Of a DNA stretch of 64,000 nt, positions 14,704-40,602 are shown piece by piece. Within the stretch, counting starts at the first letter, position 1, and the number at the start of each line of letters is the position of its first letter. Both the position numbers and the translations under genes were made by a program. The notes under the pieces were generated by a model, which saw nothing but the letters and a program-made list of their open reading frames with translations, had not been told where the DNA came from and made no database searches. This stretch comes from Mobilicoccus massiliensis (GTDB lineage: Bacteria; Actinomycetota; Actinomycetes; Actinomycetales; Dermatophilaceae). The DNA lies in the NCBI RefSeq assembly GCF_000826525.2, contig NZ_LN651330.1, positions 62,001 to 126,000 of the forward strand. Reading direction: 5' to 3'.

Positions 14704-16104
14704 ATGTCAGCCAAGACGCCCAGCCCCGCCTTCTCCGTCCGCATCCGCGTGAGGATCGCCGACCGCCCCGGCGCGCTCGGCCGACTCGCCGTCGCCATCG
14801 GTGAGGCCGGTGGGAACATCAACGCCCTCGAGGGATTCACGGTCACCACGGCCTACCTCGAGGAGGACATCATCGTCTACTGCTCGAGCGTCGAGCATCA
14901 GCAAGAGATCCGGAAGGCCGTCGAGAGCGTCCCGGGCGTCAGCATCCTCGAATGGGAGGACCGCACCCACGCGCTGCACGAGGGCGGCAAGATCGAGGTG
15001 GTCTCCCCGGTGGAGATCCTCGACATGAACACCCTGGCCATGGCCTACTCGCCGGGCGTCGCGCGGGTGTGCACGACCATCGCGAACGACACGGCCGCGT
15101 CGTTCGACTACACGATCCGCAAGAACACCGTCGCGGTCGTCTCCGACGGCACGGCCGTGCTCGGGCTCGGCGACATCGGCCCCGAGGCCGCGATGCCCGT
15201 CATGGAGGGCAAGGCGCAGCTCTTCAAGCAGTTCGGCGGGGTCGACGCGTTCCCGATCTGCCTCGACACCAAGGATCCCGACAAGATCGTCGAGATCGTC
15301 ACGGCTCTGGCCCCCACCTTCGGCGGCGTCAACCTCGAGGACATCTCGGCCCCCCGTGCGTTCGAGATCGAGGAGCGGCTCTCGGCCGGTCTCGACATCC
15401 CCGTGTTCCACGACGACCAGCACGGCACGGCGATCGTCACGGTCGCGGGCCTGGAGAACGCGCTCAAGATCGTCGGCAAGAAGCACGCGGACCTCAAGGT
15501 CATCGTCGCCGGCGTGGGCGCGGCCGGCGTCGCGGTGTCGAAGATGCTGCTCAACGCAGGTGTCACCAACCTCGTCGGCGTCGACCGCAACGGAGCCGTG
15601 CACACCGGGCGCGAAGACCTCAACTCGAGCAAGCAGTGGTTCGCCGAGAACACCAACCCCGAACGGCTCGCCGGCACGATCACCGAGGTCATCAAGGGCG
15701 CCGACGTCTTCCTCGGCCTCGCCGGACCCGACCTGCTCACCGTCGCCGACGTCGAGTCGATGGCGAAGGACCCGATCGTCTTCGCCATGGCCAACCCCGA
15801 CCCCGAGATCCGCCCGGAACTCATCAAGGACATCGCCGCGGTCATCGCCACCGGCCGCAGCGACTTTCCCAACCAGATCAACAACGTGCTCGCGTTCCCC
15901 GGCATCTTCCGCGGCGCTCTCGACGCCCGCGCCACGACGATCTCGGAGAACATGAAGCTCGCCGCGGCCCGTGCCATCGCCGACGTGGTCGGCGACGACC
16001 TGCACCCCCAGTTCATCGTGCCGACCGCCTTCGACCACCGCGTCGCCCCGGCCGTCGCCGAGGCCGTCCGCGCCGCGGCGATCGAGGACGGCGTCTGCCG
16101 CTGA
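14704..16104 (+). CDS. NAD(P)-dependent malic enzyme with N-terminal ACT domain
   Basis: A 466-residue oxidative decarboxylase turning malate into pyruvate and CO2. Residues 1 to about 80 form an ACT-like regulatory domain ([21 protein letters not shown]). The catalytic part starts near [14 protein letters not shown] and includes [25 protein letters not shown], the metal-binding [12 protein letters not shown] and the dinucleotide loop [12 protein letters not shown]. The length fits the small bacterial malic enzyme plus the ACT domain. No ribosome-binding site precedes the ATG, but a TACTGT -10 does, indicating a leaderless mRNA. The gene is followed by the repeat array. NAD versus NADP preference cannot be told by eye. 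Confidence 0.93.
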
Positions 16105-16165
16105 CCGCCGAGACACCCGCGGCCTCCCAGGACAGGCGGTCCCACCGGGGCCCGGCACCCCTGGC

Positions 16166-16240
16166 GCTCGAACAGGCGGTTTCACCCGGCGAGGAGCGTG
16201 CTGTGTCGTCGTGGGAGGGGATGAAACCGCCTGTTCGAGC
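16166..16240. repeat. Palindromic unit 1 of the repeat cluster (perfect 19-bp arms)
   Basis: Arm A at 16166-16184 and arm B at 16222-16240 are exact reverse complements with a 37-nt loop. This is the best-preserved unit. The flank GGGAGTGTGACCACCGTTGC that follows it recurs after the other units. Confidence 0.9.
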
Positions 16241-16282
16241 GGGAGTGTGACCACCGTTGCCGGGGGTCCGGGGTCCTCCGGG

Positions 16283-16355
16283 GCTCGGACAGGCGGTTTC
16301 ATCCGACGAGTAGCGTGCTGTGTCGTCGTGGAGGGGTGAAACCGCCTGTTCGAGC
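16283..16355. repeat. Palindromic unit 2 of the repeat cluster
   Basis: Arm A (GCTCGGACAG variant) is at 16283-16301 and arm B at 16337-16355, with a 35-nt loop. One mismatch in the stem comes from the A-to-G variant in arm A. Confidence 0.85.
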
Positions 16356-16390
16356 GGGAGTGTGACCACCGTTGCCGGGGGTCCGGCGGC

Positions 16391-16523
16391 CTCGGGGCTC
16401 GGACAGGCGGTTTCTCCGGGGTCTCGGCGGCCCTCGGGGCTCGGACAGGCGGTTTCACCGGGGTCTCGGCGGCCCCTCGGGGCTCGGACAGGCGGTTTCA
16501 CCGGGGCCCCGGCGTCCCCTGGA
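16391..16523 (+). repeat. Short tandem series (42-43 bp period) of half-units
   Basis: Three arm-A copies (16397, 16439, 16482), each followed by CCGGGGTCTCGGCGGCCC-like linkers and without arm B, lead into the unit at 16524. This is a true tandem repeat of half-palindromes. Confidence 0.85.
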
Positions 16524-16597
16524 GCTCGAACAGGCGGTTTCACCCGACGAGGAGCGTGCTGTGTCGTCGTGGAGGGGGTGAAACCGCCGGTTCGAGC
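16524..16597. repeat. Palindromic unit 3 of the repeat cluster
   Basis: Arm A is at 16524-16542 and arm B at 16579-16597, with a 36-nt loop and one changed base in arm B (CCGG for CCTG). Confidence 0.85.
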
Positions 16598-16748
16598 GGG
16601 AGCGTGACCACCGTTGCCGGGGGGCCGGGGTCCTCCGGGGCTCGGACAGGCGGTTTCACCCGGCGAGGAGCGAGCGGGAGCGTGACCACCGTTGCCGGGG
16701 GGCCGGGGTCCTCCGGGGCTCGGACAGGCGGTTTCACCCGGCGAGGAG
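16593..16748 (+). repeat. Perfect 78-bp tandem duplication inside the repeat cluster
   Basis: Bases 16593-16670 and 16671-16748 are identical as read. The junction lies in GAGCG, removing the arm-B half of one palindromic unit. The identity points to a recent slippage or recombination event, or to an assembly issue. Confidence 0.9.
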
Positions 16749-16793
16749 CGTGCTGTGTCTCGTCGTGGAGGGGGTGGAACCGCCTGTTCGAGC
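16718..16793. repeat. Palindromic unit 4 of the repeat cluster
   Basis: Arm A is at 16718-16736 and arm B (TGGAACC variant) at 16775-16793. The loop carries an extra CT relative to unit 1. Confidence 0.8.
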
Positions 16794-16853
16794 GGGAGGG
16801 TGACCGCCGGAGTGCCGGAGTGCCGGCGCCGGTTGGCGGCCGGGGTGGCCGGG

Positions 16854-17831
16854 TCAGAGGGTGAGCAGGACCTTGCCGATGTGACTCGACTCCTCGAGCG
16901 TGCGGTGGGCGTCGCGGACGTCGTCGATCGGCATGCGAGCGTGGACGATCGGTCGGACGGCTCCCGATTCGATGAGCGGCCATACGTGCTCGCGGACGGA
17001 GGCGATGATGGCCGCCTTCTCCTCGACCGGCCGCATCCGCAGCGAGGTCGCGATCACGGCGCCGCGCTTGCTCAGCAGCTTGCCGATGTTGAGTTCGCCC
17101 TTGACACCGCCCTGCAGGCCGATGACGACGAGCCGGCCGTTGGTCGCGAGCGCGGAGACGTTGCGGTCGAGGTACTTCGCGCCGATGACGTCGAGGATGA
17201 CGTCGGCGCCGTGGCCGTCGGTGGCCTCCTTGAGCTTCTCGACGAAGTCCTCCTCGCGGTAGTTGATGAGGATCTCCGCGCCGAGTTCCCGGCAGAACTC
17301 GAGCTTCTCCGCCGACCCCGCCGTGACGGCGACGCGGGCACCGACCTGCTTGGCGAGCTGGATCGCCATCGTGCCGATGCCGCTGCCGCCGCCGTGGATG
17401 AGCAGGGTCTGACCCGGCTGGAGGTTCGCGGTCATGAACACGTTGGACCAGACCGTCGCGACGACCTCGGGCAGCGCGGCCGCGTCGACGAGCTCGACTC
17501 CGGCGGGCACCGGCAACACCTGGCCCGCGTTCACCGCGACCTTCTCCGCGTAACCGCCGCCGTCGAGCAGCGCGCAGACCTCCTGGCCGACCTCCCACCC
17601 GGTGACGCCCTCGCCGAGCTGCGCGATCGTGCCGCTCACCTCCAGGCCGGGGAGCTCCGAGGCGCCCTTCGGCGGCGGGTAACCTCCCTGGCGCTGAAGC
17701 AGATCCGCGCGGTTGACGCCCGCGGCGGCGACGTCGATGAGCACCTCGCCGGGCTTGAGCGAGGGGGCGTCCACGTCGGCGAGGACGAGAGCGTCGAGGT
17801 CTCCGAATTCAGGAATCGTCACAGCCTTCAT
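16854..17831 (-). CDS. NAD(P)H-quinone oxidoreductase, zinc-free MDR family
   Basis: A 325-residue medium-chain dehydrogenase/reductase of the quinone oxidoreductase (zeta-crystallin-like) group. AGVNRADLLQRQGGYPPPKG is the group signature. LIHGGGSGIGTMAIQLAK holds the NADPH-binding loop, and VGARVAVTAGSAEKLEFCRELGA follows as in the group. Zinc-ligand cysteines of alcohol dehydrogenases are absent. It probably reduces quinones or enones with NADPH in the cytoplasm. TAGGGT (17838-17843, complement) ends 6 nt before the ATG, so the mRNA is probably leaderless. It faces the repeat array at its 3' end, and the mobA-side hairpin lies upstream. Confidence 0.92.
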   Translation of the reverse strand: MKAVTIPEFGDLDALVLADVDAPSLKPGEVLIDVAAAGVNRADLLQRQGGYPPPKGASELPGLEVSGTIAQLGEGVTGWEVGQEVCALLDGGGYAEKVAVNAGQVLPVPAGVELVDAAALPEVVATVWSNVFMTANLQPGQTLLIHGGGSGIGTMAIQLAKQVGARVAVTAGSAEKLEFCRELGAEILINYREEDFVEKLKEATDGHGADVILDVIGAKYLDRNVSALATNGRLVVIGLQGGVKGELNIGKLLSKRGAVIATSLRMRPVEEKAAIIASVREHVWPLIESGAVRPIVHARMPIDDVRDAHRTLEESSHIGKVLLTL

Positions 17832-39276: not shown

Positions 39277-40140
39277 ATGACCGCAGAGACCACCACCGTA
39301 TCCGCCGAGGAGACGATGCCCACGAGGCTCGGCGCCGCACCCCGCGGCGGCAAGCTGGCCGGTCGCGTCGCCTTCGTCACCGGAGGAACGCGTGGCATCG
39401 GCGCCGCGATCAGCAGCAGCCTCGCGCGTCAGGGTGCCACGGTCGCCGCCGGCTACGCCGGCAACACCGAACGCGCCGAGGAGTTCCTCGCCGACCTCGA
39501 GGAGCACTGGGGCGGCGACGGCCGCGAGTTCAGCATCCACCAGGGCAACGTCGGCAACCCGGAGGACTGCCGGCGCACCATCGAGGAGGTCATCGCCAAG
39601 CACGGCCGCCTCGACATCCTCGTCAACAACGCGGGCATCACCCGTGACCGGGTCGTCTCCAAGATGACCGACGAGGACTGGCAGTCCGTCATCGACGTCA
39701 ACCTGTCGGGCGCGTTCTACCTCTCGCAGGCCGCCCTCAAGCACATGCTCGAGCGCGGCACGGGCCGCATCGTCAACGTGAGCTCGGTCATCGGCGAGAT
39801 GGGCAACATCGGCCAGGCCAACTACGCGGCGTCCAAGGCCGGTCTGTTCGGTCTCACCAAGACCCTCGCGCGAGAGGCCGCGTTCCAGCTCGCCCGCGAC
39901 GGCAAGCTCACCGAGGACACGATCGGTGTCACGGTCAACGCCGTCACGCCCGGTTACGTGCTCACCGAGATGGTGCAGGCGGTGCCCGAGAAGGTCCTCG
40001 ACAAGATCAAGGGCAACATCCCCGTTCACCGCCTCGCGCGTCCGGAGGAGATCGGTCGCGTCGTGCACTTCCTGTGCGCCGACGAATCCGGCTTCATCAC
40101 GGGCCAGGTCTGGGGCGTCAACGGCGGTCAGGACATGTGA
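39277..40140 (+). CDS. phaB: Acetoacetyl-CoA reductase
   Basis: A 287-residue NADPH-dependent SDR reducing acetoacetyl-CoA to (R)-3-hydroxybutyryl-CoA, the PHB monomer. AFVTGGTRGIGAAI is the coenzyme loop, NNAGITRDRVVSKMTDEDW and VNVSSVIGEMGNIGQANYAASKAG give the Asn, Ser, Tyr and Lys and the FabG/PhaB-specific word. An N-terminal extension of about 25 residues before the Rossmann fold is unusual. AGAAGGAG precedes the ATG at 39277. The last 26 bp of the gene are included in a tandem duplication with the terminator downstream. A FabG role is possible, but the PHA context favours phaB. Confidence 0.93.
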   Translation: MTAETTTVSAEETMPTRLGAAPRGGKLAGRVAFVTGGTRGIGAAISSSLARQGATVAAGYAGNTERAEEFLADLEEHWGGDGREFSIHQGNVGNPEDCRRTIEEVIAKHGRLDILVNNAGITRDRVVSKMTDEDWQSVIDVNLSGAFYLSQAALKHMLERGTGRIVNVSSVIGEMGNIGQANYAASKAGLFGLTKTLAREAAFQLARDGKLTEDTIGVTVNAVTPGYVLTEMVQAVPEKVLDKIKGNIPVHRLARPEEIGRVVHFLCADESGFITGQVWGVNGGQDM

Positions 40141-40157
40141 TCGTCCGACTCCACACC

Positions 40158-40199
40158 CGCCGGTGGGCGGGGAGCCGTCGTGCTCCCCGCCCACCGGCG
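40158..40199. terminator. phaB terminator, copy 1
   Basis: CGCCGGTGGGCGGGGAGC and GCTCCCCGCCCACCGGCG form a perfect 18-bp stem with a CGTCGT loop, 18 bp past the phaB stop. Confidence 0.9.
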
Positions 40200-40292
40200 T
40201 GTCCAGGGGTGGATGTCGTGACTGATTCTGTGACCGATGCTGCGACGGGGCGTCAGCGGGGGTCAGGACATGTGATCGCCCGTCCCCCCCCC

Positions 40293-40334
40293 CGCCGGTG
40301 GGCGGGGAGCCGTCGTGCTCCCCGCCCACCGGCG
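40293..40334. terminator. phaB terminator, copy 2
   Basis: The same 18-bp stem and loop as copy 1, 135 bp downstream. The rest of the gap (40335-40602) has no gene or further structure that I can support. Confidence 0.9.
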
Positions 40335-40602
40335 TGTCCAGGGGTGGATGTCGTGACTGATTCTGTGACCGATGCTGCGACTGACTCAGGGCGATTCCCG
40401 CCTGACCCCGGGCGAGGTCTGAGTGGTGTGCCGGGGGCCTGACGGGTGCCTTCTCCTGGCCTCTCAGGACGGCCCGTCTCAGGTGACGGTCGCGACCCCG
40501 GCGATCGCGTGCGCCGGCTCAAGTGCGCGGTCGCCGCGCCGATGGACAGACGGGTGTCGCCGACGCCGGCGATGCCTCCTGCCCGTCACGAGAGGACCCT
40601 CC

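What the first reader, a model, noticed from the sequence alone, without database searches (positions are those of the whole stretch)
16105..16853. A 749-bp array of palindromic and tandem repeats built from one 19-bp core
The gap between two convergent genes holds eight direct copies and four inverted copies of a GCTCGAACAGGCGGTTTCA-type core. Four pairs make hairpins with 35-38-nt loops that are themselves conserved. Other copies form a 42-43-bp tandem series, and 78 bp are duplicated perfectly. It is not a CRISPR (unequal, repeated spacers) and not an IS (no transposase). It could be a REP/BIME-like family, an array for a DNA-binding protein, a stack of bidirectional terminators, or a source of structured RNA. 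I do not recognise it as described.
Basis: partly seen in the sequence, partly recalled or inferred. Interest (0 to 1): 0.8.

Follow-up and report, generated by a model that had tools for sequence, protein, structure and literature searches.

The report
Helix-phased repeat arrays after bacterial genes
An actinobacterium carries about five hundred copies of a 23-letter DNA word, mostly just after the ends of genes and spaced by whole turns of the double helix, which suggests rows of docking sites for an unknown DNA-binding protein.

Summary
The array is real: 12 cores (8 direct, 4 inverted) plus one weak core between two convergent genes. It is not a one-off. The 3.84-Mb genome holds 506 sites of RRACAGGCGNTTYC (at most 1 mismatch; control 13); of 63 clusters examined, 61 overlap no called gene. 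Exact sites number 223 here but 0-6 in each of 185 other genomes of the taxonomic family. Two same-genus species have only 39 and 51 bp in the same gene gap. No Y1 (RAYT-type) transposase was found.

The unit is a 23-bp core, CGCTCRRACAGGCGNTTYCACCC, with linkers that are mostly not conserved. Neighbouring cores lie near multiples of 10.4-10.5 bp, the DNA helical repeat, in all three relative orientations (the -+ class offset by 2-3 bp). Arms of close inverted pairs vary independently, so hairpins seem not to be what is conserved. Clusters lie a median 25 bp from gene 3' ends.

A same-genus species has an unrelated gene-end element with lengths in ~10-bp steps. All three IS110 copies abut a core half in register.

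Best reading: a REP/BIME-like dispersed family whose selected property is rows of protein-binding sites on one helix face. The protein and its function are unidentified.

The parts
16125..16147 (+). weak core (13th)
   Evidence: one mismatch to RRACAGGCGNTTYC at 16130
16165..16187 (+). core 1
16219..16241 (-). core 2
16282..16304 (+). core 3
16334..16356 (-). core 4
16396..16418 (+). core 5 (start of 42/43-bp series)
16438..16460 (+). core 6
16481..16503 (+). core 7
16523..16545 (+). core 8
16576..16598 (-). core 9
16639..16661 (+). core 10
16717..16739 (+). core 11
16772..16794 (-). core 12
16593..16750 (.). perfect 78-bp tandem duplication, two copies
   Evidence: 100% matches
14704..16104 (+). 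upstream gene: ACT plus malic enzyme domains
16854..17831 (-). convergent gene: zinc-binding dehydrogenase/quinone-oxidoreductase-like

Best explanation
It is one locus of a species-specific dispersed family of gene-end arrays of a 23-bp DNA site. The most likely working unit is the single site, bound as duplex DNA by a sequence-specific protein; neighbouring sites are kept a whole number of helical turns apart so that bound proteins lie on one face and contact each other. Placed mostly just after stop codons with outward-facing end sites (first core +, last core -), such a row of proteins would act as a barrier at gene ends, to RNA polymerase read-through and/or to supercoil diffusion between neighbouring genes. 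Shown here: copy number, intergenic 3' anchoring, helical phasing, mostly unconserved linkers, independent variation of inverted arms, lineage restriction. Inferred: that a protein binds, that binding is cooperative, and the barrier role.
For: Phasing: after removal of pairs with similar linkers, 107 of 267 adjacent pairs remain, R=0.63 at 10.45 bp (nR^2 about 42), and each orientation class is phased on its own. In all-pairs analysis of 56 clusters the best period between 6 and 20 bp is 10.40-10.55 bp in 11 of 12 class/range combinations and 11.10 in the twelfth (-+, 15-70 bp, n=28); the jittered-null maximum is exceeded in all 12, only just for -+ at 100-300 bp (0.34 against 0.33). One pair per cluster gives R=0.82 (n=56), and 0.71 (n=30) without the 30-32 bp mode. 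Core: conservation over 23 columns, linker columns mostly under 0.4 bit; first cores of 48 loci are 78% identical on average, while of 6 linker classes only one is clearly above shuffled identity. Arms: close +- neighbours agree at variable core positions no more than random pairs (0.537 per locus against 0.524), whereas direct neighbours do (0.64-0.69). Place: median 25 bp from 3' ends (71 distances, 50 within 50 bp) against 130 bp from 5' ends (43 distances, 6 within 50 bp); 20 of 23 codirectional clusters lie nearer the upstream 3' end; first core + in 44 of 49 and last core - in 42 of 49 clusters of two or more; 3 of 335 cores fall in called genes. Recurrence: same-genus G002 has an unrelated gene-end element whose 31 non-nested lengths fall at 90-91, 99-101 and 109-111, none elsewhere in the 83-113 bp that the pattern could see.
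Against: No binding protein was identified, and no binding or expression data were available. Two-core clusters are mostly +- (12 of 14), which a hairpin would also explain, and in 13 isolated +- pairs the arms agree somewhat more than random (0.625, p 0.03). One linker class (+-, 9 nt, 23 loci) has identity above shuffled (0.374 against 0.296), and another (direct, 19 nt, 10 loci) slightly (0.339 against 0.306), so some units may be copies of one another with inherited lengths. The 12 adjacent spacings of the window array alone do not single out 10.5 bp (R 0.68 at 10.5, 0.80 at 11.5). Ten of 57 clusters with a called gene on each side are divergent, not at 3' ends. The Flexivirga sister family has nearly fixed spacings and adds little to the phasing case.
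Confidence: 0.6

Rival explanations
1. REP/BIME-like selfish repeats spread by an unknown transposase or by duplication; phasing is an inherited by-product of a few ancestral unit lengths or of the copying machinery, with no host function.
For: High copy, intergenic, species-specific, arrays of mixed orientation, tandem duplications; direct neighbours resemble each other; one linker class is related between loci; IS110 uses the core as target, as reported for some IS elements and REPs (PMC1525189, abstract).
Against: No Y1 transposase (PF01797) match in the genome although the same search rings in 5 of 14 control genomes; most linker classes are near chance identity, yet lengths stay phased in three orientation classes; the core has no hairpin of its own.
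Confidence: 0.25
2. Strong gyrase (or other topoisomerase) sites: arrays downstream of genes wrap DNA and absorb positive supercoils, like E. coli BIME-2.
For: 3'-end and convergent positions. Passages of PMC6379681 report a gyrase motif with 10.75-bp periodic GC content, and gyrase cleavage sites enriched downstream of highly transcribed operons and in BIME-2.
Against: The E. coli motif is described as degenerate, whereas a well-conserved 23-bp word that differs between related species does not fit an essential conserved enzyme; inference, not a test.
Confidence: 0.12
3. RNA-level hairpins: bidirectional transcription terminators or mRNA 3'-end stabilisers.
For: Outward + ... - arrangement close to stop codons; the window RNA folds better than 20 shuffles, z -5.3; 12 of 14 two-core clusters are +-; isolated +- pairs agree slightly more than random.
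Against: Many arrays are mostly direct; non-redundant neighbour orientations are 56 direct, 27 +-, 24 -+, close to random; arms of close inverted pairs do not co-vary; no T run longer than 3 in the gap; hairpins do not require helical spacing of direct copies.
Confidence: 0.12
4. Intrinsic DNA curvature from phased short T-tracts, with no dedicated protein.
For: Period equals the helical repeat.
Against: The 23-bp core is far more conserved than curvature needs and holds only 2-4 consecutive T.
Confidence: 0.04

Closest known systems
REP sequences and BIMEs
   Same: Short repeats, hundreds of copies, extragenic, often in arrays with alternating orientation, species-specific, IS targets (PMC2817692 passages; PMC1525189 abstract).
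   Different: Core does not fold on itself, no RAYT found, inter-core distances are quantised by the helical turn. The PMC2817692 passage on Stenotrophomonas BIMEs says inter-REP segments lack homology and vary substantially in length; the passages I saw mention no helical rule.
E. coli RIB/RIP and BIME-2 elements bound by IHF or gyrase
   Same: Extragenic repeat elements that bind proteins (passages of PMC2817692 and PMC6379681; the 3'-end position of RIBs from a reference title in the former).
   Different: Different sequence and lineage; the partner here is unknown.
Iteron or phased operator arrays (plasmid iterons, AraC/OmpR-type sites; recalled, no call)
   Same: Repeated protein sites in helical register.
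   Different: Those lie at one or a few loci, not at many gene ends.
IS elements that insert specifically into REPs, such as ISPpu9/ISPpu10 (abstract of PMC1525189; their IS110 membership is recalled)
   Same: All three IS110-family copies found in this genome abut a CGCTC that stands where a core would be in register.
   Different: They use the repeat and are not its source; the right end is visible in one copy only, and the bridge RNA was not analysed.

Membership tests
REP/BIME | more than 100 extragenic copies per genome | tested here: met
   506 sites against 13 control; 61 of 63 examined clusters overlap no called gene; 3 of 335 cores in called genes
REP/BIME | each repeat is an imperfect palindrome able to form a hairpin | tested here: not met
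   three core variants folded as DNA: -1.3 to -1.5 kcal/mol, 108-142 of 200 shuffles fold at least as well
REP/BIME | cognate RAYT (Y1 transposase, PF01797) in the genome | tested here: not met
   0 matches; controls ring in 5 of 14 genomes; the assembly has 21 contigs, so a gene in a gap is possible
REP/BIME | clusters of repeats in alternating orientation | tested here: inconclusive
   some arrays alternate (+-+-+-), others are all direct
REP/BIME | preferred target of particular insertion sequences | tested here: met
   3 of 3 IS110-family matches abut a core's CGCTC, 54, 31 and 42 bp after the previous core; right end seen in one
CRISPR | regular same-orientation repeats with unique spacers of near-constant length | tested here: not met
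   mixed orientation, several spacings, duplicated linkers; cas genes were not searched for
Intrinsic terminator | stem-loop followed by a T-tract | tested here: not met
   longest T run in the gap is 3; consensus scan 0 found, 0.4 expected, but that scan only allows loops of 3-8
Described RNA family (Rfam 15) | match above gathering score | tested here: not met
   only a tRNA in the window
Protein-binding site array | helical register of sites | tested here: met
Protein-binding site array | specific binding of a protein | not testable with these tools
   needs pull-down or ChIP

The most novel reading that the evidence does not exclude
A general, undescribed class of bacterial gene-end elements: short site words with free linkers whose lengths are set by the helical turn, each species having its own word read by a fast-evolving DNA-binding protein, together forming gene-end nucleoprotein barriers independent of RAYT transposases. 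Cases here are this species and a same-genus species with an unrelated word; Flexivirga endophytica, with a partly shared word, is a possible third.
Probability: 0.3. Interest if true: 0.85.

Novelty: new variant of a known kind. Interest (0 to 1): 0.63.

Why it matters
What extragenic repeats do, and what preserves them, is a long-standing question; most are treated as selfish or as hairpins. Here a simple statistic (spacing modulo 10.5 bp, with mostly unrelated linkers and independently varying arms) says that the preserved thing is the rotational position of a duplex-DNA site. That makes the question testable: a protein should bind, and a half-turn change should break the effect while a full-turn change should not. 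If the same rule holds for unrelated words in related species, there may be a rapidly evolving system of gene-end DNA-binding proteins.

Tried and rejected
Single-locus function: rejected, 506 sites genome-wide. RAYT mobilisation: PF01797 not found. Horizontal spread by phage or plasmid: no match to the array in the plasmid or phage records and none for an inverted-pair pattern in viral contigs. Same word in relatives: GAACAGGCGGTTTC at most 1 mismatch, 0-3 in each of 57 others; RRACAGGCGNTTYC exact, 0-6 in each of 185 other family genomes (the 6 are the Flexivirga sister family); inverted ACAGGCG pairs 61 against 0-3 in each of 395 other order genomes. Genome-collection scan with an inverted-pair pattern: 3 stretches, of which Flexivirga proved a sister family, Frigoribacterium a lone hairpin and a Paracoccaceae bin a lone pair. 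An analogous family in same-genus G001: no clear intergenic word in 13 stretches of one contig. In Flexivirga the word GTATGRCGA is enriched but gave no close pairs, and several copies straddle start codons. RNA fold of 16 matches of the G002 element: I saw no consistent inner structure (by eye). Two 237-aa genes beside the 15-core array: no Pfam family, look secreted by eye, no partner candidate. Prior art: 10 paper searches listed nothing that by title or abstract start describes this core or helically phased dispersed repeats; the library holds only openly licensed papers, so this is weak evidence of novelty. Papers seen: PMC1525189 (outline and abstract), PMC2817692 (passages), PMC6379681 (passages), PMC6907758 (passages, not used); others only as listings.

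Full report
THE OBSERVATION. The gap 16105-16853 lies between convergent genes with ACT/malic-enzyme domains (14704-16104 +) and zinc-binding-dehydrogenase domains (16854-17831 -). It holds 12 cores, 8 on + and 4 on -, against 0.08 expected, and a weak 13th at 16130. Four inverted pairs, a 42-43-bp tandem series and an exact 78-bp duplication are confirmed. No Rfam family matches the array.

A DISPERSED FAMILY. In the same genome (3,842,609 bases, 21 contigs) GAACAGGCGGTTTC with at most 1 mismatch occurs 109 times (control 0). RRACAGGCGNTTYC with at most 1 mismatch occurs 506 times (control 13), and exactly 223 times (control 0). I fetched 48 stretches around copies. They hold 335 such sites in 63 clusters, against 1 site for the reversed pattern; the remaining 171 sites were counted but not examined. 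Of the 63 clusters, 24 are convergent, 23 codirectional, 10 divergent, 4 at contig or stretch edges and 2 inside called genes. Only 3 of 335 cores fall in called genes, which make up 311,095 of 391,551 bases.

ANATOMY. Aligning 321 distinct copies shows conservation over 23 columns, CGCTC-RRACAGGCGNTTYC-ACCC, with linker columns mostly under 0.4 bit. First cores of 48 loci are 78% identical on average. Linkers of 6 length/orientation classes were compared between loci, one per locus: one (+-, 9 nt, 23 loci) is clearly above shuffled identity (0.374 against 0.296), one (direct, 19 nt, 10 loci, two of them identical) slightly above (0.339 against 0.306), the rest within about one standard deviation of it or below. 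So the word is conserved and most of what lies between is not. The single core has no hairpin of its own.

HELICAL PHASING. Adjacent spacings pile up at 31/32, 41-43, 52-54 and 62-64 (direct), 21, 30-31, 40-42 and 51-52 (+-), and 44-45, 53-55, 63-66 and 74-76 (-+). After removing pairs with similar linkers (267 to 107) R is 0.63 at 10.45 bp, with each class phased separately (R 0.63, 0.86, 0.65). Using all pairs within 56 clusters, the best period between 6 and 20 bp was 10.40-10.55 in 11 of 12 combinations and 11.10 in the twelfth; direct and +- pairs stay clearly phased at 100-300 bp (R 0.47 and 0.54; null maxima 0.13 and 0.20), while -+ pairs there barely exceed their null (0.34 against 0.33). 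One pair per cluster gives R 0.82 (n=56), and 0.71 (n=30) when the dominant 30-32 bp mode is dropped. The window's own 12 spacings are too few to single out 10.5 bp.

DUPLEX SITE OR HAIRPIN. If hairpins were kept by selection, the arms of close inverted pairs should agree at the variable core positions. They do not: 0.537 per locus (34 loci) against 0.524 for random pairs from different loci, while direct neighbours agree more (0.64-0.69), as tandem duplication predicts. In 32 arrays with both kinds, inverted 0.522 and direct 0.680 (p 0.0003). Thirteen isolated +- pairs are a partial exception (0.625, p 0.03) (all). Non-redundant neighbours are 56 direct, 27 +- and 24 -+, close to random orientation, although two-core clusters are +- in 12 of 14.

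PLACE. Distances from clusters to 3' gene ends have median 25 bp (71 values, 50 within 50 bp), to 5' ends 130 bp (43 values, 6 within 50). Of 23 codirectional clusters 20 lie nearer the upstream gene's 3' end. In 49 clusters of two or more the first core is + in 44 and the last is - in 42. This outward-facing order also holds in most divergent clusters (first + 9 of 10, last - 7 of 10, single cores included), so it belongs to the element and is not set by transcription. The same two genes are adjacent and convergent in two same-genus species: the dehydrogenase-like protein is 83% identical in G002 and 80% in G003 and the malic-enzyme-like one 84-90%. The gap there is 39 and 51 bp (gene calls) against 749 here, so the array is most likely a lineage-specific expansion at an old junction. 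In G001 no such dehydrogenase gene was called in the stretch that follows.

DISTRIBUTION AND SISTER FAMILIES. Exact sites number 223 here and 0-6 in each of 185 other genomes of the family; inverted ACAGGCG pairs number 61 here against 0-3 in each of 395 other genomes of the order. Viral contigs, plasmid and phage records gave none (records very near the window's genome may be left out by the tool). Two relatives carry their own gene-end elements. Flexivirga endophytica (L079; its genome G208 has the same counts and listed places as family member G079) has CGAGAGGACAGGCGATT units, mostly ++-- with direct spacing 19-20 and +- spacing 41-42, once 51; two apparent 60-61 distances come from skipped degenerate units, so this case says little about phasing. 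Same-genus G002 has GAACAACACSGACRACAT...CAGGTCAG...inverse: 33 pairs there, none in G000, G001, G003 or G079. Its 31 non-nested matches measure 90-91 (5), 99-101 (20) or 109-111 (6), and no other length between 83 and 113, the range the pattern could see; linkers are largely unconserved among nine 100-bp copies. At least one of the two 91-bp rows (L186) starts or ends at an inner copy of a 9-bp subrepeat and is really a 100-bp element. A sample of G001 (13 stretches of one contig) showed no clear family. So length quantisation recurs with a different word in one relative, which argues for a rule about DNA geometry.

MECHANISM. I read each core as the site of a sequence-specific DNA-binding protein, with neighbours held on one helix face for contact, building a gene-end barrier. 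The site, phasing and place are shown; the protein, its cooperativity and the barrier role are inferred. Gyrase is a serious rival because a gyrase motif in E. coli has 10.75-bp periodic flanks and BIME-2 elements are gyrase sites (PMC6379681, passages). A purely selfish origin is also open, but no RAYT was found in the assembly.

AN INDEPENDENT SIGN OF REP-LIKE STATUS. The genome has three PF01548 (IS110) matches. All three left ends directly follow a CGCTC that stands 54, 31 and 42 bp after the previous core, where the next core would be in register. In the only copy with both ends present the right end is followed by GGGACAGGCGTTTTC. The element therefore appears to use the core as target, as ISPpu9 and ISPpu10 use REPs (PMC1525189, abstract); the exact element ends are inferred.

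VERDICT. The new part is the helical register. Novelty: new variant of a known kind, with a possible general class behind it.

Noticed in passing
L041:4714-5757 (G000:C5), L188 and L189 (ends of C3 and C18): Three IS110-family copies, each directly after a CGCTC in core register; the two at contig ends are cut off by the assembly. A bridge-RNA target loop matching the core is predicted but was not analysed.
   Followed up: partly
L062:4632-5807: A Mutator-family transposase gene (PF00872) lies between two repeat arrays.
   Followed up: no
G002 loci L172-L186: A different gene-end element with three conserved modules (terminal inverted 20-mers and a central CAGGTCAG) and mostly free linkers, about 90, 100 or 110 bp long.
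   Followed up: partly
L092-L105 (G079, Flexivirga endophytica): Gene-end ++-- elements of CGAGAGGACA units sharing GGACAGGCGNTT with the window's core.
   Followed up: partly
G079 stretches L152-L171: The 9-mer GTATGACGA is enriched in called intergenic sequence (12 of 219 regions, 0.27 expected); several copies of GTATGRCGA straddle start codons, so it may be start-codon context.
   Followed up: partly
window 40112-40381: A 135-bp tandem duplication, 94% matches.
   Followed up: no
L072:3961-4367: A nine-core array lies between divergent genes with Ku and ATP-dependent DNA ligase domains; another array (L041) lies next to a second ATP-dependent ligase gene.
   Followed up: no
G000 contigs C1, C3, C17, C18: Repeat arrays lie near contig ends, so array sizes there may be incomplete.
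   Followed up: no
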